A stretch of 64,000 nucleotides of DNA, from positions 62,001 to 126,000 of the forward strand of contig JAKVBG010000003.1 of NCBI GenBank assembly GCA_022447605.1, in the 5' to 3' direction. This DNA is from Mariniblastus sp. Its GTDB lineage: Bacteria > Planctomycetota > Planctomycetia > Pirellulales > Pirellulaceae. This document shows positions 18,442-58,858 of this stretch, piece after piece; the stretch's first letter is position 1, and each line of letters starts with the position of its first letter. The notes beneath the pieces were generated by a model. It was not told the DNA's origin. It did no database searches and saw only the letters and a list, made by a program, of their open reading frames with translations. Made by a program: the position numbers and the translations under genes.

Positions 18442-19116
18442 TCAAGACTGGATCGATGCCCAGGTCCAATGGCGGTCGGTTGTCGCCTGAACATCCTCAG
18501 CATCAAAGCCGTTCTGAACGACCAGTTCCCGGATTTCATCAATCGACAGGGCGGCCCGCAACGAGTCATCGAACATCTGTCGCGAATGGTCATTCTCCTG
18601 GCCGGCATACGTTTGGACCAGGTGCTCCACCTGGGCGTCCGTCTCGGGCCGTAGCAGGTCCCGCACATACAGGATTCCCCCACTGGCCGTCACCCGCACC
18701 ATCTCACTGACGCAGTCGGCTGGTTCAGGAATATGGTGGATGATGCTATTGGACATCACCGAGGAGAACATCCCGTCGGAAAACGCCATCTGCTTGGCAT
18801 CCACCTGCGCCAATTCGATCCGCTCGATCAGGCCGTCGGCCTCGATATTGTACCGGGCCAGTTCCAGCATGTTGATCGACATATCGATCGCCATGACCCG
18901 ACAGTCCGATTCCCGCTGACACAACTCGATCGGGATCAGCGCGGTCCCGGTTCCCAGGTCCAACACATCCCCCAATGGTTTCTCGTGCGCATTGGCAAAA
19001 TGGAGCAGATCGCTGACAAACACCCGGTTGACCTCCGAGTGATCCATCGCGTTGTAGTCCTCCGCTTCCTGCGAAGTATCCATCACTTCCGGTTCCCGTA
19101 CACGTTCCAGGCTCAT
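18442..19116 (-). CDS. class I SAM-dependent methyltransferase
   Basis: The 224-residue product has a Rossmann methyltransferase domain: motif I VLDLGTGTALIPIEL (near residues 51-65), the acidic end of beta-2 in VMAIDMSINML, motif II AQVDAKQMAFSDGMFSSVMS and post-motif FFHH-like NSIIHHIPEP. It resembles UbiE/type-11 methyltransferases. Its ATG directly follows the TGA of the permease gene, so translation is coupled, and the PII-like gene follows after ten bases. The substrate is unknown. Between a permease and a PII protein it may modify the transported compound or a regulatory target, but nothing in the sequence shows this. Confidence 0.8.
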   Translation of the reverse strand: MSLERVREPEVMDTSQEAEDYNAMDHSEVNRVFVSDLLHFANAHEKPLGDVLDLGTGTALIPIELCQRESDCRVMAIDMSINMLELARYNIEADGLIERIELAQVDAKQMAFSDGMFSSVMSNSIIHHIPEPADCVSEMVRVTASGGILYVRDLLRPETDAQVEHLVQTYAGQENDHSRQMFDDSLRAALSIDEIRELVVQNGFDAEDVQATTDRHWTWASIQS

Positions 19117-20820
19117 TCAGGCCTCCAGTTGTTCAAATTCTTCGTCGGTCGAAATGGGTGGCGTCGTCTTTCCCATCGTCAAACCCAACAGGAATAGCAG
19201 GACTGCCATCACCAGGTAGGCAACGGCAAACTGCAGGACGACCCGGGTCGAAGCCGCGTCAAATGCGTACAAAGTGTTCCACATATTCCAAGGCAAAAAC
19301 ATCTTGTCGCCCTCCAATGGTGAATGCATCACACCAAACAGGACGAGCAATCCCCCCACCGCCATATAGAGCGAGGCCTGAATGAAACGGCGATCGATGA
19401 TCTTGGCCATGGCTGAGGCCCAGATCAAGCTGGTCAGAATAAAACCTCCTGCCAAAACATTCATATGCAGCACCAAGCTCTGTAAATCCGTTCGCACCGC
19501 GGCCGGCAATGAATCCCAATCCAACCATGCGGCGAACTGCCCCACATAAATCATGATCAACTTGGCCAAGGCCGGCAAACAAGCGATTGCCAGTGCCGCA
19601 TAATGCCTGCGTGGTGTTGCGTGAAAACTTTGTGCGGTAATCTCGATCCCGATAAAAATCAGGATCGGCAAAAGGGCCGCTTCCGGTATGAACTTGAACA
19701 ACAGCCCGAAATAACCGATCAAACCGGCGCCCCCTACGAACAGGGCCGTGGCCAGGGTGTACGCCGCACGGCCCCCCATCGCTTTGTAGGCAGGATGCCC
19801 AATGTAGGGAGTGGTTTGAATCACACCCCCACACAAACTCGCACCAATCGTGGCGAGCGCTTCGATGCTAATCACGTTATTCGTATCAAAATCATCACCC
19901 ACCGATGCCGCGCTCTCGGCACAGTCAATTCCTCCAATCACGGTGGCAATGGCAAAGGGAATCACATACGGGAGATATTGAAAGGTCGATTCCATGGCAT
20001 CAAACCAGGAAAACTGGAAGACCGTCAGCCATTCCATGGGAAACCAGACGGGATCCGTCTCATTACTGGGTAATTGCGGTGCCAAACGGGTGCCCAGCGC
20101 CTCGTCCGCGCCGACCATCAGGTACCACAAGACCGACCCGATCATGACCGCCCCCAGGGCCCCCGGTATTCGGAAAGGGAGTTTGCCCCGGGCGACCAAA
20201 GTCACCAGAACAATGATCAACGCGGCAAAACCGACAATCGGATTGACGGCGAGTTTGGGCAGCTGCATGAAGGCTATCAGCACCAGGGCAATCGCTGCCA
20301 GCGACCCCAACAGCCCCGCTCGCGGAAACACGTTCCGCACCCAGTTGGAACCAAAAGACATCAGAAGTTTGATCAGACCTGTGATGAAGATGGCGCAAAT
20401 ACCAATATGCCAAGCCTCCATCGCCGCCGTTTGAACGGCTACTTGCTCGGCCATCCCTTCGGCCAACAGTCGCTCCTTGGCCGTCACAAAAGCGGGGCCG
20501 ATCACGAACAACACCATCCCGATCGTACTCGGTGTATCCAGCCCCAGTGGCATCGCCGTCACATTGGTCTTGCCCGTTCGTTTGGCATAGCGAAAGGCCA
20601 ACCAAAAGAACATCAGATCCCCGACCATGACGCCGATCGCCGTTCCCGGCACCATGTAACGCAAGGAAAAATCTACAGGGAACTGAAAGATGCTAGCTAA
20701 CATACCGACGGTCAAAACAAGACCGGCAATGTTGTCTAACATCAAGCCAAAAAAGGCATTTACGTCACCTGGAGCGGCCCAGATATAGCGGTTTTTCTTC
20801 ACGGCTGACCTTTTCGGCAT
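19117..20820 (-). CDS. NCS2/AzgA-like multi-pass permease
   Basis: The 567-residue product has about 12-14 membrane helices and resembles xanthine/uracil/adenine-type (NCS2, AzgA-like) permeases. The N-terminal block GDVNAFFGLMLDNIAGLVL, TAMPLGLDTPSTIGMVLF and the central IGGIDCAESAASVGDDFDT are the recognisable parts. Longer than usual loops lie around residues 115-135 and 230-260. It heads an operon with a methyltransferase and a PII-family protein. This recalls transporter/PII pairs such as AmtB-GlnK and SbtA-SbtB, in which the PII protein gates the transporter. The substrate could be a nucleobase or another small anion. The family call is moderate. Confidence 0.75.
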   Translation of the reverse strand: MPKRSAVKKNRYIWAAPGDVNAFFGLMLDNIAGLVLTVGMLASIFQFPVDFSLRYMVPGTAIGVMVGDLMFFWLAFRYAKRTGKTNVTAMPLGLDTPSTIGMVLFVIGPAFVTAKERLLAEGMAEQVAVQTAAMEAWHIGICAIFITGLIKLLMSFGSNWVRNVFPRAGLLGSLAAIALVLIAFMQLPKLAVNPIVGFAALIIVLVTLVARGKLPFRIPGALGAVMIGSVLWYLMVGADEALGTRLAPQLPSNETDPVWFPMEWLTVFQFSWFDAMESTFQYLPYVIPFAIATVIGGIDCAESAASVGDDFDTNNVISIEALATIGASLCGGVIQTTPYIGHPAYKAMGGRAAYTLATALFVGGAGLIGYFGLLFKFIPEAALLPILIFIGIEITAQSFHATPRRHYAALAIACLPALAKLIMIYVGQFAAWLDWDSLPAAVRTDLQSLVLHMNVLAGGFILTSLIWASAMAKIIDRRFIQASLYMAVGGLLVLFGVMHSPLEGDKMFLPWNMWNTLYAFDAASTRVVLQFAVAYLVMAVLLFLLGLTMGKTTPPISTDEEFEQLEA

Positions 20821-21151: not shown

Positions 21152-21799
21152 ATGCAAGCCACGATTCACGATTTGCACTTTAACCATTCACGCCAACTCA
21201 CTGCTAAGCAAGATCCGGTGACTGACGAGCAATTGCTGATTGAATACCGCGAAACGGGTGACCGGGAGCTGTATGCGCAACTCGTTTACCGGTATGAGCG
21301 TGAGTTGTTCAGTTACCTGAGAAGGTATTTGGGTAACGCCGAGATGGCCGAGGACGTTTTTCAGACAGCGTTTTTGCAGGTTCATCTCAAGTGTGATCTG
21401 TTTCAGGCAGGTCGTCGTTTCCGACCGTGGCTTTATACGATTGCAACCAATGCGGCCATCGATGCCCGACGGCGTAACAAGCGACACAGGATGGTCAGCC
21501 TTGACACGCCGCGCGAGCAAGAAAATGAAGATGTGGGCCGCCTGGTGAACCTCTTGGAGAGTGGCGATCTGGGTCCTGTGGGGTCGGCCGAACGCGCCGA
21601 GGCAAATCGCCTCGTTCGCGAAACGCTGAACCAACTGCCCGAGTCGATGCACGCGGTGATTCAGCTGGTCTATTACCAGGGTTTGAAATACCGCGAAGCG
21701 GCGGAAATTTTGGAGGTTCCGGTAGGAACCGTCAAGAGCCGCCTGCATTCGGCAATTGCCAGACTGACCGATGTTTGGAATTCAAGCCAGGTCGACTGA
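21152..21799 (+). CDS. ECF-type RNA polymerase sigma factor
   Basis: The 215-residue product has region 2 at about residues 35-105 (LVYRYERELFSYLRRYLGNAEMAEDVFQTAFLQV in part, then FRPWLYTIATNAAIDARRR). Region 4, at about 160-210, has the helix-turn-helix YREAAEILEVPVGTVKSRLH. It directs core polymerase to specific promoters. The following gene encodes a membrane protein with an anti-sigma-like N-terminus, so this sigma is probably held at the membrane. The linker between regions 2 and 4 is long and acidic. The start at ATG 21152 has an AGAGGA just upstream, but a start a few codons later cannot be excluded. Confidence 0.9.
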   Translation: MQATIHDLHFNHSRQLTAKQDPVTDEQLLIEYRETGDRELYAQLVYRYERELFSYLRRYLGNAEMAEDVFQTAFLQVHLKCDLFQAGRRFRPWLYTIATNAAIDARRRNKRHRMVSLDTPREQENEDVGRLVNLLESGDLGPVGSAERAEANRLVRETLNQLPESMHAVIQLVYYQGLKYREAAEILEVPVGTVKSRLHSAIARLTDVWNSSQVD

Positions 21800-21856
21800 G
21801 CAACCCCCGGCGGTTGCCAGCTGGTTTGGCCTACCCAGTTGAGTGAAAAAAGAACC

Positions 21857-22897
21857 GTGAATAACCCTTCGAAAGAAGATTTGCTGGGCTACGTGTTGGG
21901 GGCATTGGACGCCGACCAACAGCAGCAGGTCCAGCAGTCGATCGACCAAGACCCCCAGATTGAAGATGAACTGATCGAGATCAAGGCTTCCTTGGCTCCG
22001 TTGGAGCTGCTGGAGAGCAGGTCCGGAGCGCGTCCTGGATTGGCGCGACGAACCTGTGAATCGCTGGCGATCCTGCAGAAAACAGAAGCGCGTGAATCTG
22101 CCGCAGATTCTCACCCGGATGAGCCCGCGTTGTCACCCGCCTCCCGGGAGCGCTCGCTCCAGCAGATGAGCCCGGAGTTCGCGACCGGGACCCTCCGGTC
22201 CCGCTGGTCCTTGAACGACCTGTTGGTGGGCATTGCCTGCGCCGCGGTGATGGTCGGCCTGTTATTCCCGGCCATATCGTACACCCGTTATTACAGCAAC
22301 CGAGCTGGCTGCCAGGAAAACATGATCAGCCTGGGGTCCGCCTTCCAGTCCTACAGTGATATCCACGATGGGCAATTCGTGGCGATCCCGACCTCCGGCA
22401 ACTGTGCCGTCACTGGCATCTTTGCACCGACGCTCAAGGCTGCCGGCCTGTTGTCGGACGATCACCTGGCCTGCCCTGGGTCAAATCGGGAAGCGCCCGT
22501 TTTCGTTCCCAGCCTGCAGACGATTGAAGGAAGCCGGGGAGAACGATTGTCGTATTACCACCAGATCATGGGTGGGGATTACGGTTACACGATGGGATAC
22601 TACGCAAACGAACAGTACGTAGCGCCCACCGATGTAGGCAGAAGCCACTTCATCCTTTGTGCTGACAAGCCCTCGCCAATGAACGAGGGGTTCCGGTCCA
22701 GCAATCACGGTGGTGTCGGACAGAACTGCCTGTTCGAAGATGGCCACTACCAGTTTGTCAAAGGGCACGCTTACGGCCATGACCCGATCTACAAAAATGA
22801 TTATGACATGGTGGCCGCTGGGGCTCACGCCAACGACTCGGTGATCGGTGCCAGCCACAACGCACCGACTCATTACAAAATGTCGCTCATTGAATAA
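21857..22897 (+). CDS. membrane anti-sigma-like protein with a DUF1559-like extracytoplasmic domain
   Basis: The 346-residue product starts from GTG 21857; TTG 21839 is an alternative. Residues 1-75 resemble the helical anti-sigma/zinc-less ASD-type N-terminus (SKEDLLGYVLGALDADQQQQV...). A single membrane helix lies at about 121-141 (LLVGIACAAVMVGLLFPAIS). The outside part begins like a pseudopilin neck (YYSNRAGCQENMISLGSAFQSYSDIHDG) and ends in the DUF1559-type H-x-DG signature (NHGGVGQNCLFEDGHYQFV). It follows an ECF sigma gene by 57 bases. It likely binds the sigma factor inside and senses something outside with the pseudopilin-like domain. The roles are inferred from layout; domain resemblance is visible. 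Confidence 0.72.
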   Translation: MNNPSKEDLLGYVLGALDADQQQQVQQSIDQDPQIEDELIEIKASLAPLELLESRSGARPGLARRTCESLAILQKTEARESAADSHPDEPALSPASRERSLQQMSPEFATGTLRSRWSLNDLLVGIACAAVMVGLLFPAISYTRYYSNRAGCQENMISLGSAFQSYSDIHDGQFVAIPTSGNCAVTGIFAPTLKAAGLLSDDHLACPGSNREAPVFVPSLQTIEGSRGERLSYYHQIMGGDYGYTMGYYANEQYVAPTDVGRSHFILCADKPSPMNEGFRSSNHGGVGQNCLFEDGHYQFVKGHAYGHDPIYKNDYDMVAAGAHANDSVIGASHNAPTHYKMSLIE

Positions 22898-29234: not shown

Positions 29235-31061
29235 ATGAACCGAATCGTGCCCAGTCTCCTTGCCGCCTTGATCGCAGCCGGGATCGGCCTCTGCCCGGGC
29301 TACCTCCTGGCTGTGCAAACAGGGAACGACTCCACGGATGAGTCGGCCGCGGCTTCCAAGTGGCGACGCCATCAGGCACTCCAGCAACAGTTGCTGGAAT
29401 CGATCGAGGCACTCGGACTGAGCGAAGCGGCCCGGCCCTGGATCATCGACCGCGATCCGCAGCGACTCTACGTTTTCCCACCGCAGGAACAGGTTCATCT
29501 GCCGGACGAAGCGAAACTGCAACCGTTGCTGGAACAGCACGCCGATCGCCTGTTCACGTTGGCCCGTCAACTGAGCGACGAGAAGCAGGCCGCTGCCTGC
29601 TTTCAGACCTTGCACGAAGTCCTGTTCTACAACCCGAACCACGCCCAGGCCCGCGAGATCCTGGGGCATCGCGCCGAGGGAGACGCCTGGCACGTCGCCT
29701 CGGATCGGCTGCGAATCACCGTTGCCACGCGGCGCCAACCGCTGATGGACTGGCCGGCCAAATCGTACCGGATCTGCAAGACACCCCATTTCGAAATCGC
29801 CTCGCAGGCGAGTGAAGCAGAGACCCGTTTGTTGGCCGAGAAGCTCGAGCTATGGCATCAAGTCTGGCGGCAGGTCTTCTTTGAGTACTGGTCCAGCGCC
29901 TCCACGCTGCAGCGCTGGATGGCCGGCAAGGGAAAGGCGCGACTGCCGACCAAGAAATTCCAGGTGATCTTTTTCAAGGACCGGAATGCCTATGTGGATG
30001 GCTTGTCACCCTCGATCCCGGGGATCGCGGCCTCGACCGGCTATTACGCACCCTCGGAGGAAGCCTCTTTCTTTTACGCCTCGGACCAGGTGCAGGACCA
30101 GGCAACCTGGCGACATGAATTGACCCATCAGTTGTTCCGCGAGTCGCGACGCTCGGCCCCGGACCCGTTCGCGGACCGGTTCCTCTGGCTGGATGAAGGG
30201 ATCGCCATGTATTTCGAATCGCTCAGCGAATTCCCGCGGCATATCGTGCTGGGTGGGTTCGACGCGAGGCGGCTCCAGTTTGCCAGGATCCGCTGCCTGA
30301 AAGAACAGTTCTACATTCCGGCCAAGGAGCTGACAGGGCTCGATCAAAAAGCATTCCAAACCCACCCACAAGTCCAAAAGGTCTACAGCCAGTCGGCCGG
30401 GCTGGCCCACTACCTGATGAGCGCCGATCATGGTGGGCTGCAACCAAAATTATGTGAATTCCTGCGGCTCAGTTACCTGGGCAAGCTGAAGGACGACTCG
30501 TTCAACAAGATCATCGGGATCACAATGGACAAGATCGATACGGCCTACCCCGAATTCCTGCGGGTCGAGCGGGAGCAACTGGAGGCAGGCGTCAGCGCCC
30601 CGAACCTGCGGACCGAGTTAGCGCTGCCCCGTTCCCAGCTCTCCCCGGTCGCCCTGGCGGAAATTGGCCGCTGTCCCCATCTCGTCTGGCTGGACTTGTC
30701 GGCGGCCGATTTACGGGGAGAAGTACTGGCCGGGATCCAGGGCTGTGGCCAGTTGCGCCAGCTCTTCCTGACCGGTTGCCTGCTAGATCGGTCCAGCCTG
30801 GAGGGCTTGCGCGGGCTCCAGCAGCTGGCCCAACTCGACCTGAGCGCATCCAGCCTGGCCGATGACGACCTGGGCCCTCTGACCGCACTGCCCGCCCTGG
30901 CCGATCTGAATCTGGCCGGGACCCGCATCACCGATGCGGCCGTCCCCACCCTGATACGGCTCAAAGGCCTGACCGGCATCAACCTGTCGGGCAGTGGCCT
31001 GACGCGCGCCGGGGTCGGGCGACTGCAAGCGGCCCAACCAGATCTGAACATTACGTTTTGA
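29235..31061 (+). CDS. exported DUF1570-type metalloprotease-like protein with leucine-rich repeats
   Basis: The 608-residue product has a signal peptide (about residues 1-26). A helical and TPR-like N-terminal half is followed by a DUF1570 (gluzincin-like) domain with the zinc signature HELTH (294-298) in TWRHELTHQLFRESR and a downstream acidic ligand candidate in WLDEGIAMYFES. After about residue 450 come several leucine-rich repeats (LVWLDLSAADLRGEVLAG, LAQLDLSASSLADDDLGPL, LADLNLAGTRITDAAV, LTGINLSGSGLTRAGV). The joining of a protease-like domain with an LRR ligand-binding region suggests a surface enzyme with its own recognition module. The substrate is unknown. Confidence 0.8.
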   Translation: MNRIVPSLLAALIAAGIGLCPGYLLAVQTGNDSTDESAAASKWRRHQALQQQLLESIEALGLSEAARPWIIDRDPQRLYVFPPQEQVHLPDEAKLQPLLEQHADRLFTLARQLSDEKQAAACFQTLHEVLFYNPNHAQAREILGHRAEGDAWHVASDRLRITVATRRQPLMDWPAKSYRICKTPHFEIASQASEAETRLLAEKLELWHQVWRQVFFEYWSSASTLQRWMAGKGKARLPTKKFQVIFFKDRNAYVDGLSPSIPGIAASTGYYAPSEEASFFYASDQVQDQATWRHELTHQLFRESRRSAPDPFADRFLWLDEGIAMYFESLSEFPRHIVLGGFDARRLQFARIRCLKEQFYIPAKELTGLDQKAFQTHPQVQKVYSQSAGLAHYLMSADHGGLQPKLCEFLRLSYLGKLKDDSFNKIIGITMDKIDTAYPEFLRVEREQLEAGVSAPNLRTELALPRSQLSPVALAEIGRCPHLVWLDLSAADLRGEVLAGIQGCGQLRQLFLTGCLLDRSSLEGLRGLQQLAQLDLSASSLADDDLGPLTALPALADLNLAGTRITDAAVPTLIRLKGLTGINLSGSGLTRAGVGRLQAAQPDLNITF

Positions 31062-31070
31062 AGGGAAGTG

Positions 31071-31859
31071 ATGAACGATATTCGACCGTGGGTTTTGGCC
31101 GAAACGAATTACGGCCAGGTCAAGCAGCAGACTTACGAGGTGGCCGTGATCCCGCTGGGGGCGACCGAGCCACACAACCTGCACCTGCCGTACGGCACCG
31201 ACCTGTTCGAAGCGAACGAAGTCAGTCAGCGCATCTGCCAATACGCCCATGAGCGGGGCGCCTCGGTCGTCACGCTACCCGCCATCCCGTTTGGAACGGA
31301 GACGAACCTGGCTGAATTCCCCCTGGCGATCAACCTGAACCCTTCTACGCTGCATGCCGTGCTGGAAGATATCGTCGATTCGCTGACCGACAGTGGGATC
31401 CAGAAAATTGTGCTGCTCAACAGTCACGGCGGAAACGAGATGAAACCGTTTCTCCGCGAGATGGCCGGCACCACCCCGGCCCACCTGTTTCTCTGCAACT
31501 GGTACCAGGCGATCGGTGACGTCTACTTCGACCTGTTTGAACATGCCGAGGATCACGCTGGCGAGATGGAGACCTCGTTTGCCCTCGCCTATTTCCCGAA
31601 CCTGGTCGCCAGGAACGACGATGGCAGCCTGACGGCCGACGAGGGAAAGACGCGGCCGATGCGGTTTGAGGCCTTGAACCAGGGCTGGGTCTCGATCACC
31701 CGACCCTGGCACCTGCTCACCACCAACTCGGGCGCGGCCAACCCGCACCAGGCGACGGCCGACAAGGGGCGGCGGATGATGGAGATCCTGGAAGAACGGC
31801 TGGGCGGATTCCTGCTGGAACTGTCCGAGTCGGAACTGGACGAGTCCTTCCCATTTTGA
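31071..31859 (+). CDS. creatininase-family amidohydrolase
   Basis: The 262-residue product starts at ATG 31071, behind an AAGGGA ribosome site; GTG 31068 is in frame just before it. Creatininase-fold metal-ligand blocks are visible: PLGATEPHNLHLPYGTD near residues 28-44 (Glu, His, Asp), LLNSHGGNEMKP and DHAGEMETSFAL. Members hydrolyse cyclic or lactam-like amides, for example creatinine, or the formamide intermediate in riboflavin and F420 synthesis (ArfB) and mycofactocin (MftE). Nothing nearby selects between these. It starts ten bases after the DUF1570 gene and is probably co-transcribed. Confidence 0.88.
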   Translation: MNDIRPWVLAETNYGQVKQQTYEVAVIPLGATEPHNLHLPYGTDLFEANEVSQRICQYAHERGASVVTLPAIPFGTETNLAEFPLAINLNPSTLHAVLEDIVDSLTDSGIQKIVLLNSHGGNEMKPFLREMAGTTPAHLFLCNWYQAIGDVYFDLFEHAEDHAGEMETSFALAYFPNLVARNDDGSLTADEGKTRPMRFEALNQGWVSITRPWHLLTTNSGAANPHQATADKGRRMMEILEERLGGFLLELSESELDESFPF

Positions 31860-44305: not shown

Positions 44306-44863
44306 GTGCCTGAAAGCAACCCTGTATTAACCGTTCGTCCCAAGATTGCGGACTTGAATTTCCACTTGTATGGGCGATCCATCCATCCGGAACTTTTTGA
44401 TACGTGTGCCGGGCGATTGATCGAGCGGGAGAATTACAGGATCCATCTGAACATCACCTCGGACGGTCACTTGGTCGTTTTTGAACACGACTCGGTTGTC
44501 CTGTCCGAGGTTGCCGCCAGTGCGCTTCATCCCCTGCCCTCACGACGACAATTGATTTGCTGTCCCTTCGAGTCAGTTCGCGAGGAAGAGACGTCCTTCC
44601 AGGATCGTGTCCATTACCAATGTGAATTCCAACTGGACATTGTCGAACCCAAGACATTTTTTTCGATCGCCCAGCAAATCAATCAAAGCCAGGAATGCGA
44701 TGGCTTGATCCACCGGTTCCAATCGAGCGGACGAATGGCTTTTGGAGCGGTGAGTTTCATTCATATCCAGGCTTTTCGCGAACACGTATGCCTGAAGACG
44801 TTTCACACGTTTCCGGATTCCTGTGCCATGGTGAAAAGCCAATCGGAATTCCGACTGACCTAG
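44306..44863 (+). CDS. DUF2617 protein
   Basis: The 185-residue product starts at GTG 44306; nearby ATG codons are out of frame. It matches DUF2617, a Pirellula-group domain: TVRPKIADLNFHLYGRSIHPELFD at the start, CPFESVREEETSF in the middle and a beta-rich C-terminus. No signal peptide or catalytic motif is visible. The function is unknown. The protein supports the taxonomic reading of the window. Confidence 0.75.
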   Translation: MPESNPVLTVRPKIADLNFHLYGRSIHPELFDTCAGRLIERENYRIHLNITSDGHLVVFEHDSVVLSEVAASALHPLPSRRQLICCPFESVREEETSFQDRVHYQCEFQLDIVEPKTFFSIAQQINQSQECDGLIHRFQSSGRMAFGAVSFIHIQAFREHVCLKTFHTFPDSCAMVKSQSEFRLT

Positions 44864-44893
44864 CCCTCCGTTCATCGGGGCGGCCCGCTCCCA

Positions 44894-45700
44894 TCATGTC
44901 GACAGCGGTTCGCCTGCCAGGAATCGACCGATGGCGCGGTTGACGAACTGCGGGCTTTCCAGGGGGGCCAAGTGGCCCGCACCCGGAACACTCAGCAATT
45001 GACTGTCCGGGATCGCATGGGCAACCTCGCTCATTTCACCCGGGGTTGTAATCCGATCCTGTTCCCCGACAACCAGCAGAGTTGGACAAGCAATGGATGC
45101 CAATAGAGGTGTTGCATCATTGCGGAGCGCCATGCCCAACAGACCGTCGGCGACCGACTGCGGCGCCGCCCGTTGAATCGTACGGCTTAACTGGTCCCGT
45201 ACGGCCGCCTGGGATTCTGTCGGATCGGTCGCAACGAGCCGGTTGGGCATCGAACGGGCCAGTTCATCCATCCCATATTTCAGGACGGAGCGGGCCGTCA
45301 TTCGTCGGACGCGAGCCGCCGCCTCGTCATCGGCGGCTGCCCGCGTATCGCACAGGATCAAATGGGACAGACGCTTTGGGAAAGACCGGTAAAACTCCCA
45401 CGCAATATAACCGCCCATCGACAAGCCACAGAAGCAAACGGGCTGTTCGCCAACGATCTTTTGCAACAACTCGGACAGGTCGAGTGCCAACTGGCTCATG
45501 GTCAACTCCGCCGTGCCTCGTTGACTCACTCCAAAACCGCGGAGGTCGGGAGCAATCACCTGGTAGCGGTTCGCCAGGTAGTCGATCTGGTGGTGCCACA
45601 TCCCGTGATCCAGCGGGAAGCCATGAACCAGGAGAACCGGGGGACCCTGCCCGACAATATGACAACCCATCTCGATTTCAAAAACGTTGAACGATTCCAT
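44894..45700 (-). CDS. alpha/beta-hydrolase
   Basis: The 268-residue product has the classical fold: oxyanion block LLVHGFPLDHGMWHHQ (about residues 22-37), a substrate-gating RVIAPDLRGFG-like strand (YQVIAPDLRGFGVS), the nucleophile elbow CGLSMGGYIAWEF, the acid in LVVGEQDRITTP and the catalytic His in PGAGHLAPLE. It is close to haloalkane-dehalogenase and 3-oxoadipate enol-lactonase-like enzymes. The DUF2752 gene lies eight bases upstream, so they are likely co-transcribed. The substrate is unknown. Confidence 0.85.
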   Translation of the reverse strand: MESFNVFEIEMGCHIVGQGPPVLLVHGFPLDHGMWHHQIDYLANRYQVIAPDLRGFGVSQRGTAELTMSQLALDLSELLQKIVGEQPVCFCGLSMGGYIAWEFYRSFPKRLSHLILCDTRAAADDEAAARVRRMTARSVLKYGMDELARSMPNRLVATDPTESQAAVRDQLSRTIQRAAPQSVADGLLGMALRNDATPLLASIACPTLLVVGEQDRITTPGEMSEVAHAIPDSQLLSVPGAGHLAPLESPQFVNRAIGRFLAGEPLST

Positions 45701-55552: not shown

Positions 55553-56086
55553 TCAAACCGTTTCCAACTCGATACCAAGTCCATCGGCAATCCGGTTGGC
55601 AAAGGCGAAGTAGGCCGTCACGGCACAGAGGTCATGAATCGCCCGGTCATCCAGACCGGCCTGCCGCAGAGGTTCCATGTCGGCCCGTTCGACTCGTCCT
55701 GGCGTTTCGGTCAATTTGACCGCGTATTGAAGCATCACCCGGTCGGTCGGATCGAGGTCCACCGCCCGCCAATCCCGAATCAGTTGTTCGACGCGCTGGC
55801 CAGCTTCCCCCGACGACAAACCCTCGCTCATCCACTCTCGACGCAGACCGCGCGCATGGTGAACCTGTCAGTAGTGGCACTCGTTCAAACTGGAAACAAC
55901 CACGGCAACCATCTCCCGCTGTCTTCGGCTCAGCGGACTGGGGGCGTGCATCAAGCCGCGATAGAGTTCCCAATGTTGCCGCATCACGGCTGAGTGGACC
56001 GAGTGAACCTGCAGGATATGGTCACTGTCGTCGATGCGATTTGCAGGTGACTGCTGTTCAACCGGAAGATAGTCGATGAATGCCAT
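55553..56086 (-). CDS. AhpD/CMD-family peroxidase-related selenoprotein (Sec encoded by in-frame TGA)
   Basis: ATG 56086 through TGA 55868-55870 to the stop at 55553 is a single frame of 177 residues if TGA is read as selenocysteine. It then matches the AhpD-like peroxidase-related family along its whole length: PLSRRQREMVAVVVSSLNEC before the TGA, QVHHARGLRREW directly after it and AYFAFANRIADGLGIELE at the end. The active site is Cys70-His-Tyr-Sec73 in NECHYUQVHHA, with His77 four residues after Sec as in AhpD (Cys130, Cys133, His137). A SECIS-like hairpin follows the TGA. Members reduce peroxides through a CxxC pair. bioD lies 40 bases upstream. A pseudogene would not be expected to break exactly at the catalytic Cys. 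Confidence 0.87.
55828..55867 (-). promoter_or_regulatory. bacterial SECIS-like hairpin directing Sec insertion
   Basis: Eighteen bases after the TGA, the loop GGUCU is closed by GCGC and GCGU (loop at 55845-55849 on the plus strand), with a possible lower helix UCAC/GUGG. E. coli fdhF, as I recall it, has the same GGUCU loop and the same 18-base distance from its UGA. It lies inside the coding region, as bacterial SECIS elements do. Confidence 0.8.
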
Positions 56087-56126
56087 GCTGGACCTGACTG
56101 CCGGGGCGGGTTGATTAACGAAAAAC

Positions 56127-56864
56127 CTACGAAGCATCACCTTCGGGTGGGGAGATATCAACCGCCATCGATTCCGTGGCAACTTGGTGCCAGTTGACCG
56201 GCTGGCTGAACTGGCTCGCTTCATAATCGACCTTGGCCAACAGCGGCACCTGGATCCTGCATTCAATCTCCTGGGGGTTGGTTGGAATGCTGCGATCCCC
56301 CTCGAATACCTGCGGGTTGTTCAGCACGACCCCGCCGACCGGGATCCCGCCACGGAAGCAGGACGCGGTGATCAAGGTCTGCAAGGTCTGGTTGATGACA
56401 CCCAGCACGTTGGGCGCGACCACAACGACCGGGTAACCAAAGTCAAATGCGAGATCCGCCACGTATTCTTCGTCGCTGATCGGTGACATCAAGCCACCCG
56501 ATCCTTCGACAACGATCAGGTCGCACTGACCCTCCCATCGGCTGATGCCGTTCCGCAACAAGTCAATATCCATCTGTCGACCCTCAGCGCGAGCCGACAG
56601 GTGAGGGGCCAGGGGGGCCCGGAAGCGTTGGGGACAAACATCGTTCAGTGTCAACGGCCTTCCGGCAGCTTCCCACAAAGCAACCGCATCTTCAGAAACC
56701 AGCTCCTGGCCGTCGTGCACACAATCACTGGCCGAAGGTTTATAGACGCCCACCCGATAGCCGGCGTCGACTAAAGATTTTACGATGAGAGCCCCGACGT
56801 AAGTCTTCCCGACTTCGGTATCGGTTCCCGTGACAAACAGACCGACAGGTGGTTTCTTGAACAT
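56127..56864 (-). CDS. bioD: dethiobiotin synthetase
   Basis: The 245-residue product has the P-loop GTDTEVGKT (Lys20) near the N-terminus, the second NTPase block VVEGSGGLMSPIS and VVAPNVLGVINQTLQTL, as in BioD. It closes the ureido ring of dethiobiotin from 7,8-diaminononanoate, CO2 and ATP, the third-last step of biotin synthesis. No other bio gene is in the window. The selenoprotein gene lies 40 bases downstream and may share its transcript. Confidence 0.93.
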   Translation of the reverse strand: MFKKPPVGLFVTGTDTEVGKTYVGALIVKSLVDAGYRVGVYKPSASDCVHDGQELVSEDAVALWEAAGRPLTLNDVCPQRFRAPLAPHLSARAEGRQMDIDLLRNGISRWEGQCDLIVVEGSGGLMSPISDEEYVADLAFDFGYPVVVVAPNVLGVINQTLQTLITASCFRGGIPVGGVVLNNPQVFEGDRSIPTNPQEIECRIQVPLLAKVDYEASQFSQPVNWHQVATESMAVDISPPEGDAS

Positions 56865-56925
56865 GCTGTTAAGTTAGCATTTTGCTGGGCCTGTTCCAAT
56901 CAGATGGAAAACGGTTAAAAATCCA

Positions 56926-57798
56926 ATGAAATCCAAATTCGTCCAGATCGCAGCACTGCAAACAAGCTGTTCTGACAACCGTTCGGCCAACCTCGAGCAG
57001 TCGATCGAGCTGATTCGCAAGGCGGCACAAGAAGGCGCAGAGCTGGTTTGTCTGCAGGAGCTTTTCCACAGTCGCTATTTCTGCCAGACCGAAGATCATC
57101 AGCATTTCGAGATGGCCGAGTCGATCCCGGGTCCCACGACCGAGGCCATCGCCAAAGTGGCGGCCGAGCTCCACATCGTCGTCGTGGCCAGCCTGTTCGA
57201 ACGCCGGGCCGCTGGCCTGTTCCATAACACGGCCCTGGTCTTCGAACGGGACGGGGCGATGGTAGGCAAATACCGGAAAATGCACATTCCCGACGACCCC
57301 GGTTACTACGAGAAATTCTACTTCACGCCGGGAGATCAAGGCTTTGTGGCGATCGAAACCTCGGTCGGCACCCTGGGCATCTGCATCTGCTGGGACCAGT
57401 GGTTTCCCGAAGCCGCCCGGCTGACGGCCCTGGCCGGTGCCCAGGTGCTGATTTACCCCACCGCCATCGGCTGGCTGTCGGAAGACAAGCAGGACTTTGG
57501 GGCCAGCCAGCAGGACGCCTGGCAAACCGTGATACGTTCCCATGCCATTACCAATGGCATTTTCGTCGTTGCTGCCAACCGGATTGGAACCGAGGAAAAC
57601 ATAGAATTCTGGGGCCATTCCCTGATCGTTGACCCTTACGGCAATGTGATCGCACAAGGTTCCTCGGATCAAGCCGAAATTGTTACCGCCCCCTGCAACC
57701 TGGAGTCGATTGAAACGGCGCGCACCCACTGGCCGTTCCTGCGCGACCGTCGCATCGATGCCTACTCCGGCCTCGACCGACGGATGATCGATGAATGA
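56926..57798 (+). CDS. aguB: N-carbamoylputrescine amidohydrolase
   Basis: The 290-residue product is a nitrilase-superfamily enzyme with the Glu-Lys-Cys triad: Glu45 (LVCLQELFHSRYFCQ), Lys118 (GKYRKMHIPDDP) and Cys155 (GICICWDQWFPEAARL). The pattern HIPDDPGYYEKFYFTPGD is typical of N-carbamoylputrescine amidase. It hydrolyses N-carbamoylputrescine to putrescine, CO2 and ammonia. The next gene, agmatine deiminase, overlaps it by eight bases, giving a two-gene route from agmatine to putrescine. Confidence 0.93.
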   Translation: MKSKFVQIAALQTSCSDNRSANLEQSIELIRKAAQEGAELVCLQELFHSRYFCQTEDHQHFEMAESIPGPTTEAIAKVAAELHIVVVASLFERRAAGLFHNTALVFERDGAMVGKYRKMHIPDDPGYYEKFYFTPGDQGFVAIETSVGTLGICICWDQWFPEAARLTALAGAQVLIYPTAIGWLSEDKQDFGASQQDAWQTVIRSHAITNGIFVVAANRIGTEENIEFWGHSLIVDPYGNVIAQGSSDQAEIVTAPCNLESIETARTHWPFLRDRRIDAYSGLDRRMIDE

Positions 57799-58858
57799 AG
57801 CAACGGAATTGATCGACTTGCACGCGGCCGGGTTTCGCATGCCACCCGAATGGCATCCCCATGCCGCGACCTGGCTGGCATGGCCCCACAACCGCGAAAC
57901 GTGGCCCGAGAATCTATCTCTGGCCCAAGAGGAATTCTGGCAGCTGGTCGTGGCCATTTCTCAGGATGAGCCCGTTTGCATCGTGGCCGACCTGTCTCAA
58001 AGGGAAAGGGGAGCCGAGCTGCGCAGGAGAATTGCCGGGCAGGCCAGCGAGAATATCCGACTGTTTGACATCCCGACCAATGACGCCTGGCTGCGGGATT
58101 ACGGACCCACATTCTGCACGGACCCCTCCGGTAAGCGCCTGGCAGCCGTCGACTGGAAATACAATGCCTGGGGAGGAAAATATCCCCCCTTCGACGCCGA
58201 CCAGCAGATCGTAACGCGGCTACTGGACCACGCGCAGGGACCAACCGATTGCCTGCACGCCCGGTCGAGACTCTGCCTCGAAGGGGGCGCCATTGAAATC
58301 GACGAGTCCGGCCTGTTGTTGTGCACCACGCGGTGTGCTCTGAACCCGAACCGGAACCCGGGACTGGACCAGGCGTCGGTCACCGCGCAGTTGCAACAAT
58401 CTTTGGGGGCATCGGCTGTCATCTGGCTCCGCGGTGATTCACTGATCGGTGACGATACCGACGGTCACATCGACCAGCTGGCCCGTTTCACACCTGCGGG
58501 GTCGATCCTCTACGCCTGGGTGGAAGCGACGGACCCTCAACATGGTGGCCTGGCTGGCAATCTCGATGACCTGCAACAGTCTCTCCGCCTGGCGAAGATC
58601 CAGAAAGAGCTGGTACCGCTTCCCCTGCCCGAACCGGTCCTGTTTGACGGGGTGAGGCTGCCGGCCAGCTATTGCAATTTCTATATCACCAACCGCTCTG
58701 TACTGGTCCCCCAGTTCGACGTTCCCCAGGACGGGGCCGCCCTGCAGATTATCGGCCAACATTTCCCCGACCACCAAGTGGTCGGGCTGCCATCGAGAAA
58801 CCTATTGGTGGGACTCGGGTCGTTTCACTGCCTGACTCAGCAACAGCCTCGCCTGTAA
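57791..58858 (+). CDS. aguA: agmatine deiminase
   Basis: The 355-residue product has the PPAD-type amidinotransferase fold: NDAWLRDYGPTF, CLEGGAIEIDESG, DTDGHIDQLARF and the catalytic cysteine Cys347 in GLGSFHCLTQQQP near the C-terminus. It converts agmatine to N-carbamoylputrescine, which the preceding enzyme hydrolyses. The start overlaps aguB by eight bases, so the pair is translationally coupled. Together they make putrescine from arginine-derived agmatine; no arginine decarboxylase is in the window. Confidence 0.93.
   Translation: MNEATELIDLHAAGFRMPPEWHPHAATWLAWPHNRETWPENLSLAQEEFWQLVVAISQDEPVCIVADLSQRERGAELRRRIAGQASENIRLFDIPTNDAWLRDYGPTFCTDPSGKRLAAVDWKYNAWGGKYPPFDADQQIVTRLLDHAQGPTDCLHARSRLCLEGGAIEIDESGLLLCTTRCALNPNRNPGLDQASVTAQLQQSLGASAVIWLRGDSLIGDDTDGHIDQLARFTPAGSILYAWVEATDPQHGGLAGNLDDLQQSLRLAKIQKELVPLPLPEPVLFDGVRLPASYCNFYITNRSVLVPQFDVPQDGAALQIIGQHFPDHQVVGLPSRNLLVGLGSFHCLTQQQPRL

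What the first reader, a model, noticed from the sequence alone, without database searches (positions are those of the whole stretch)
55553..56086. AhpD-family selenoprotein hidden by an in-frame TGA
Seen: two frames on the minus strand are in phase and separated by one TGA. The TGA stands exactly where AhpD-like proteins have the second Cys of CxxC (NECHY-TGA-QVHHA), and the family signature continues on both sides. Known: CMD/AhpD-like selenoproteins have been reported in bacteria. Inference: this is a functional Sec-containing peroxidase-type enzyme, and standard annotation would split it into two short ORFs.
Basis: partly seen in the sequence, partly recalled or inferred. Interest (0 to 1): 0.93.

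Follow-up and report, generated by a model that had tools for sequence, protein, structure and literature searches.

The report
AhpD-type selenoprotein in a planctomycete
A planctomycete gene that looks cut in two by a stop codon is predicted to make one intact AhpD-type redox enzyme with selenocysteine in its active site; the same TGA is kept in many relatives, and selenoproteins of this family have been described since 2005.

Summary
On the minus strand, 55553-56086, one frame of 177 codons is interrupted only by TGA at codon 73, the second Cys position of the AhpD motif (CHY-TGA). Read through, it scores 128 bits against TIGR01926 (cut-off 81.8). The genome has tRNA-Sec(TCA), SelA, SelB and an oxidoreductase-SelD fusion. 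Of the 30 best matches in 147 genomes, own included, 28 hold exactly one TGA, 2 no stop. Purifying selection acts on both sides of the TGA. A SECIS-like hairpin follows: its stem covaries in clade A, and its GGUCU loop sits at the same distance as in E. coli fdhF. Folding the window alone gives no significant hairpin. Gene calls do lose half the protein: 57 of 120 listed homologues are C-terminal pieces of 97-112 aa. Sec incorporation is very likely, but untested. It is not new in kind: CxxU AhpD-like selenoproteins were reported in 2005 and 2008, and a 2026 review lists one under TIGR01926. Mildly new: Sec forms fall into two lineages with differently placed hairpins, suggesting more than one gain of Sec.

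The parts
55553..56086 (-). AhpD-like (TIGR01926, CMD fold) selenoprotein gene, 177 codons plus TGA stop
   Evidence: TGA conserved in relatives; dN/dS well below 1 on both sides of the TGA
55868..55870 (-). In-frame TGA, codon 73, predicted Sec: second position of the CxxU motif (C70-H-Y-U73)
   Evidence: TGA in 12 of 12 clade A loci of one codon alignment, window included; Cys in solved relatives 3c1l, 2pfx, 2oyo
55840..55854 (-). SECIS-like hairpin, nt 17-31 counted from the T of TGA, loop GGUCU at 55845-55849
   Evidence: Stem covaries in clade A; GGUCUG at the same nt 22-27 as in E. coli K-12 fdhF. In the window alone not exceptional
56127..56864 (-). bioD-like dethiobiotin synthase gene, 40 bp upstream on the same strand, possibly co-transcribed (inferred)
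   Evidence: TIGR00347 141.9 bits; homologue next to the Sec gene in 4 other distinct planctomycete loci

Best explanation
The gene at 55553-56086 (minus strand) has an in-frame TGA at the second cysteine position of an AhpD-type CxxC site, and this TGA is very likely read as selenocysteine, giving one 177-residue redox protein. Inferred mechanism: SelB carrying Sec-tRNA(UCA) binds the hairpin just downstream of the UGA and inserts Sec73. Cys70 and Sec73, with Glu58, Tyr72 and His77 as proton relay, would cycle between a reduced and a selenylsulfide state, reducing peroxides or the disulfides of peroxiredoxins. Shown by calls: the frame, the conserved TGA, the Sec machinery, the covarying hairpin in clade A, the active-site residue spacing. 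Inferred: Sec insertion, redox cycle, substrate and electron donor.
For: Sec machinery in the same genome: tRNA-Sec 68.7 bits with anticodon TCA, SelB 377 bits with winged-helix domain, SelA 573 bits (18, 73), SelD fusion (19, 73). One TGA in 28 of the 30 best rows and in 53 rows of 47 of the 147 genomes overall (own included), against one weak row with TAA and none with TAG. Purifying selection: against the Mariniblastus homologue dN/dS is about 0.12 before and 0.13 after the TGA, dS being near saturation. Hairpin: covariation score reached by 0 of 500 shuffles in 7, 8 and 13 clade A loci; targeted stem score reached by 0 of 1000 synonymous shuffles summed over 13 clade A and over 20 clade B loci. 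selA match in 42 of 47 TGA-form genomes against 56 of 100 others, Fisher p 6e-5. Fold: AlphaFold pLDDT 96.9 with Cys for Sec; 16 best PDB rows are AhpD-like or peroxidase-related proteins, TM 0.78-0.87. E58, C70, Y72, position 73 and H77 have the spacing of Glu36, Cys48, Tyr50, Cys51, His55 in PA0269. Further genes of the genome with an in-frame TGA, three of them read and all at redox sites.
Against: The hairpin in the window alone is not more stable than shuffles (0.264 of synonymous shuffles reach its stem score), and whole-region folding energies of clade A show no clear excess. L025 lacks the GGUCU loop and most of the stem, and the Acidobacteriota loci fold best two nucleotides earlier; with all 13 loci a stem slid by 3 columns has as many double changes (11 against 10), though fewer paired cells and a lower score. 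Two of 47 TGA-form genomes showed neither selA nor selB at the thresholds used: G023 (71% complete) and G029 (99% complete). The genome is a draft in 203 contigs with 4.2% contamination, and the sel genes lie on other contigs than the window. No protein-level evidence; activity and substrate are unknown.
Confidence: 0.93

Rival explanations
1. The TGA is a nonsense mutation or sequencing error in an ordinary CxxC gene, which is now a pseudogene.
For: A single TGA in an otherwise Cys-type family would look like this in one genome; Cys forms exist.
Against: The same codon is TGA in 33 distinct loci read in detail, window included (13 clade A, 20 clade B), five of them from Acidobacteriota; selection persists after the TGA.
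Confidence: 0.02
2. TGA is reassigned in this lineage to another amino acid (Trp or Gly) throughout the genome.
For: Some database copies carry W or G at this site (P0002, P0003, P0012), as if called under another code.
Against: The gene itself ends in TGA; the genome has tRNA-Sec and SelA/B/D; the position is Cys in solved relatives; W or G would remove the redox pair.
Confidence: 0.01
3. Termination at the TGA is the main outcome and the downstream part is made from an internal start as a separate protein.
For: Gene callers place starts downstream of the TGA: 57 of 120 listed proteins are 97-112 aa and align to residues 75 onwards.
Against: The split would cut the CxxU site and separate the two active-site helices 54-67 and 71-87. 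These short records are gene predictions, not observed proteins.
Confidence: 0.03
4. The gene is read through with Sec but the protein is no peroxidase: it acts as a disulfide reductase adaptor or on another substrate.
For: Characterised AhpD-type proteins regenerate peroxidases and are weak peroxidases themselves (passages of PMC3141380; PMC10460364); the fold also includes the debrominase Bmp8 and sestrins.
Against: PA0269 of the same fold does reduce H2O2 weakly. Nothing here separates the two.
Confidence: 0.5

Closest known systems
AhpD-like selenoproteins (AhpD-like 1, COG2128, CxxU) of the Sargasso Sea and GOS surveys, PMC1088965 and PMC2398784
   Same: AhpD-like protein, Sec at the second position of CxxU, SECIS-like hairpin directly downstream, Cys homologues
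   Different: Those were metagenome reads; here whole genomes with the Sec machinery, neighbouring genes and lineages. COG2128 itself was not tested here.
AhpD-like protein, TIGR01926, CxxU, MCB9421940.1, in the 2026 review PMC13188914
   Same: Same NCBIfam family (128 bits, cut-off 81.8) and same motif
   Different: That record's sequence was not compared
Peroxidase-related proteins of known structure (3c1l, 2pfx, 2oyo, 6k40, 2prr)
   Same: Fold, length (188-197 aa) and, in the three alignments shown, the active-site region
   Different: Cys in place of Sec in the three aligned (3c1l, 2pfx, 2oyo)
NF041238 AhpD_rel_CFYUT and NF053654 YciW-related (seleno)proteins
   Same: AhpD-like; named (seleno)proteins by NCBI
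   Different: The window protein scores 57 and 19.5 bits, far below their cut-offs of 175 and 310

Membership tests
AhpD-like CxxU selenoprotein of TIGR01926 | Scores above the TIGR01926 cut-off when TGA is read through | tested here: met
   128.3 bits against 81.8; 119.7 bits in the genome search
AhpD-like CxxU selenoprotein of TIGR01926 | In-frame TGA at the second position of CxxC, with Cys homologues | tested here: met
   C70-H-Y-TGA73; Cys in L028, L033 and 45 of 55 database rows
AhpD-like CxxU selenoprotein of TIGR01926 | Bacterial SECIS hairpin just downstream of the UGA | tested here: met
   By comparison, not by folding the window alone: covariation, synonymous-shuffle test, same loop position as fdhF; single-sequence folding not significant
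AhpD-like CxxU selenoprotein of TIGR01926 | Host has SelA, SelB, SelD and tRNA-Sec | tested here: met
AhpD-like CxxU selenoprotein of TIGR01926 | Sec present in the protein | not testable with these tools
   Needs mass spectrometry or 75Se labelling
Peroxidase-active AhpD fold | Proton relay of Glu, Cys, His/Tyr, Cys, His with the spacing of PA0269 | tested here: met
   E58, C70, Y72, Sec73, H77 against Glu36, Cys48, Tyr50, Cys51, His55
Peroxidase-active AhpD fold | Peroxidase or peroxiredoxin-reducing activity | not testable with these tools
   No assay possible
NF041238 AhpD_rel_CFYUT (seleno)protein | Score above the family cut-off | tested here: not met
   57.1 bits against 175

The most novel reading that the evidence does not exclude
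Selenocysteine was gained more than once at the same active-site position of AhpD-like proteins: clade A (this gene; Planctomycetota and Acidobacteriota) and clade B each built their own SECIS hairpin, with the loop at nt 22-26 after the UGA in planctomycete clade A and about nt 28-33 in clade B; clade A and the largest clade B subgroup both recruited Gly-Leu codons for the same GGUCU loop.
Probability: 0.45. Interest if true: 0.4.

Novelty: new member of a known kind. Interest (0 to 1): 0.25.

Why it matters
It adds a well-supported selenoprotein, with its genome context, to a family first described from metagenome reads, and shows again that standard gene calls truncate such genes: nearly half of the listed homologues are C-terminal pieces. 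Such half proteins mislead annotation of planctomycete redox metabolism. The two Sec lineages with differently placed SECIS hairpins offer a case for studying repeated Cys/Sec exchange.

Tried and rejected
Nonsense mutation, genome-wide TGA reassignment and two separate genes were considered and rejected (see rivals). Folding the window's own downstream region gave no significant hairpin, nor did whole-region energies against synonymous shuffles; only the targeted stem test and covariation did. These tests treat related loci as independent, so their strength is overstated. The first covariation count left out L025, the eighth planctomycete clade A locus, because it lacks the hairpin; with it the score still beats 500 of 500 shuffles. 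In clade B covariation is weak: 19 of 500 shuffles reach the score in six loci and 87 of 500 in thirteen near-copies; L047 was in neither.

A conserved functional partner was sought: bioD and a CN-hydrolase lie beside the gene in four other planctomycete loci, an agmatine deiminase-like gene in one (most loci are too short to show it); one Acidobacteria contig has a weakly similar CN-hydrolase (33%) next door, and the ORF lists of three others show none that I recognised. No functional link is claimed. The ten best-scoring other in-frame TGA junctions of the window gave either no Pfam domain (6) or none that spans the TGA (4); the scan ranked the real gene 46th of 160, so it is insensitive.

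Literature: searches. Searches returned no paper, so no planctomycete AhpD selenoprotein was found in print by these words.

Full report
Observation. Window 56086 to 55553 on the minus strand is one frame of 177 codons from ATG to a TGA stop, interrupted only by TGA at codon 73 (55870-55868). Ordinary ORF listing gives a 132-aa piece (55868-56266) and a 92-aa piece (55553-55831). Read through, the protein hits Pfam CMD across the TGA (50.6 bits, cut-off 23) and NCBIfam TIGR01926, peroxidase-related enzyme (128.3 bits, cut-off 81.8).

Organism. The window is part of contig C127 of a 4.99-Mb draft genome in 203 contigs, 94% complete, 4.2% contamination. The closest homologue found (68% identity) lies in G026, labelled same genus; its contig has the length and the gene sequence of JABACA010000043.1, a Mariniblastus sp. 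MAG. The host is therefore most likely a Pirellulaceae planctomycete near Mariniblastus.

Sec machinery. The genome has tRNA-Sec (68.7 bits, gathering 47; anticodon TCA), SelB (377 bits, cut-off 242; winged-helix domain), SelA (573 bits, cut-off 268) and SelD (271 bits, cut-off 125) fused behind a pyridine nucleotide-disulphide oxidoreductase domain (733-aa frame). The SelD part carries CLGC, in line with the Ndh-SelD fusions with CxxC described in PMC2398784 (passages). Other genes of the genome also hold one in-frame TGA: 8 of 26 AhpC-TSA matches and the one SelW-like (Rdx) match. Of these I read two AhpC-TSA genes (WGDW-TGA-PPC) and the SelW-like gene (C-N-Q-TGA); all three TGAs lie at expected redox sites.

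Conservation of the TGA. In 147 genomes (the window's own included) 90 have a match. Of the 30 best rows (E up to 2.3e-22) 28 have exactly one TGA inside and 2 have no stop. Over the whole list 53 rows in 47 genomes have one TGA, one weak row has two TAA, none has TAG. In the 33 distinct TGA loci read in detail, the window among them, the TGA always stands at the second position of CxxU. Two Cys loci (L028, L033) have TGC there. Six named MAG loci were found, one planctomycete and five Acidobacteriota by their titles, all with the TGA.

Co-occurrence. Of the 47 genomes with a TGA form, 42 have a selA match at E up to 1e-40, against 56 of the other 100 (Fisher p 6e-5; hand-counted; one of the 42, G021, is a partial match below the family cut-off). 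Of the five without selA, three have selB. G023 (71% complete) and G029 (99% complete) have neither at those thresholds; G029 is a point against. G057, which has the Cys form, has neither selA nor selB; G098, also with a Cys form, does have selA.

Selection. Against the Mariniblastus homologue, NG86 dN/dS is about 0.12 (0.182/1.513) over 72 codons before the TGA and 0.13 (0.247/1.849) over 104 after it; third positions change most on both sides, 31 and 55. Synonymous sites are near saturation.

SECIS. In the window nt 22-27 from the start of the TGA read GGTCTG; E. coli K-12 fdhF has GGTCTG at the same nt 22-27. In clade A, G22 and G23 are invariant in 13 of 13 loci and GGTCT is present in 11 of 13. 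For the stem 17-21/27-31 the covariation score is 0.695 (shuffle mean 0.230) in seven planctomycete loci, 0.636 (0.220) with L025 added and 0.469 (0.160) in all 13 clade A loci, reached by 0 of 500 shuffles each time. Cells paired are 88.6, 82.5 and 70.8%. In the 13-locus count a stem slid by 3 columns has 11 double changes against 10, but 56.9% paired and a score of 0.292. A targeted stem score beats synonymous shuffles when summed over clade A (196 against 133, sd 12) or clade B (338 against 202, sd 15), 0 of 1000 each; the two Cys loci do not (18 against 16; 272 of 1000). These sums treat related loci as independent. For the window alone the hairpin is not significant.

Protein. AlphaFold2 (Cys for Sec, 56 sequences) gives mean pLDDT 96.9; the best PDB matches are peroxidase-related AhpD-like proteins 2pfx, 3c1l, 6k40, 2prr, 2oyo. 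E58, C70, Y72, position 73 and H77 have the spacing of the proton relay Glu36, Cys48, Tyr50, Cys51, His55 of PA0269, which reduces H2O2 weakly (PMC3141380, passages). AhpD proteins of Corynebacterium regenerate thiol peroxidases through Lpd/SucB/NADH (PMC10460364, passages). Whether this protein is a peroxidase or an adaptor is open.

Annotation. Of the 120 proteins listed (of 218 found), 57 are 97-112 aa long, and all 57 align to residues 75 onwards of the joined protein. P0010, a hypothetical protein of Mariniblastus, is the part of the Mariniblastus gene right after the TGA.

Evolution. In a tree of 89 proteins the Sec rows fall in two main groups: clade A with this gene (13 Sec rows) and clade B (19 Sec rows). 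Holding all 32 Sec rows together against 47 Cys rows is rejected (AU p 0.0006); at least 4 Sec/Cys changes are needed. Five genomes (G023, G024, G039, G054, G076) have a clade A gene and a second, weaker match that also holds one TGA; those second copies were not placed in the tree. The SECIS loop lies at nt 22-26 in planctomycete clade A and at about nt 28-33 in 19 of 20 clade B loci; in 12 of the 13 loci of the largest clade B subgroup it is again read from GGT CTG, Gly-Leu. This suggests separate gains, but an unrooted tree cannot exclude one old Sec form with losses, and hairpins may shift.

Literature. PMC1088965 (passages) reports 27 AhpD-like selenoproteins and CXXU in 2005; PMC2398784 (passages) lists AhpD-like 1, COG2128, CxxU, 299 sequences; PMC13188914 (passages) lists AhpD-like protein, TIGR01926, CxxU. 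Planctomycete selenoproteins and Sec genes were reported in PMC4807772 (passages). The finding is therefore a new member of a known kind.

Noticed in passing
G000 C160, locus L015:1393-3594: SelD is fused behind a pyridine nucleotide-disulphide oxidoreductase domain (733-aa frame), with CLGC in the SelD part.
   Followed up: partly
G000 C129, C1, C68, C2, C160, C150, C24 (L058, L059 read): 8 of 26 AhpC-TSA matches in the genome hold one in-frame TGA; the two read have WGDW-TGA-PPC, a UxxC site.
   Followed up: partly
G000 C146:4797-5006, L061: SelW-like (Rdx) gene with an in-frame TGA in a CxxU site, 76-aa frame.
   Followed up: partly
window 56127-58858: bioD-like gene upstream of the Sec gene, then divergent CN-hydrolase and agmatine deiminase-like genes; all three are kept in Mariniblastus L050, and bioD plus CN-hydrolase in L020, L022, L024.
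   Followed up: partly
G029, locus L041: A 99% complete genome with a TGA form but no selA or selB found at the thresholds used.
   Followed up: no
P0002, P0003, P0012, P0027, P0031, P0036: Database homologues with W or G at the Sec position, probably TGA read under another genetic code by gene callers (inferred, DNA not seen).
   Followed up: no
P0005, P0006, P0007: A small group inside clade A with S, C or A at the Sec site and, in P0006 and P0007, no first Cys: apparent loss of the redox pair.
   Followed up: no
window 29235-31856, 18445-20820, 21152-22894, 44576-45700: In-frame neighbouring ORFs separated by a TGA; no Pfam domain spans the TGA, so they look like ordinary adjacent genes.
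   Followed up: partly
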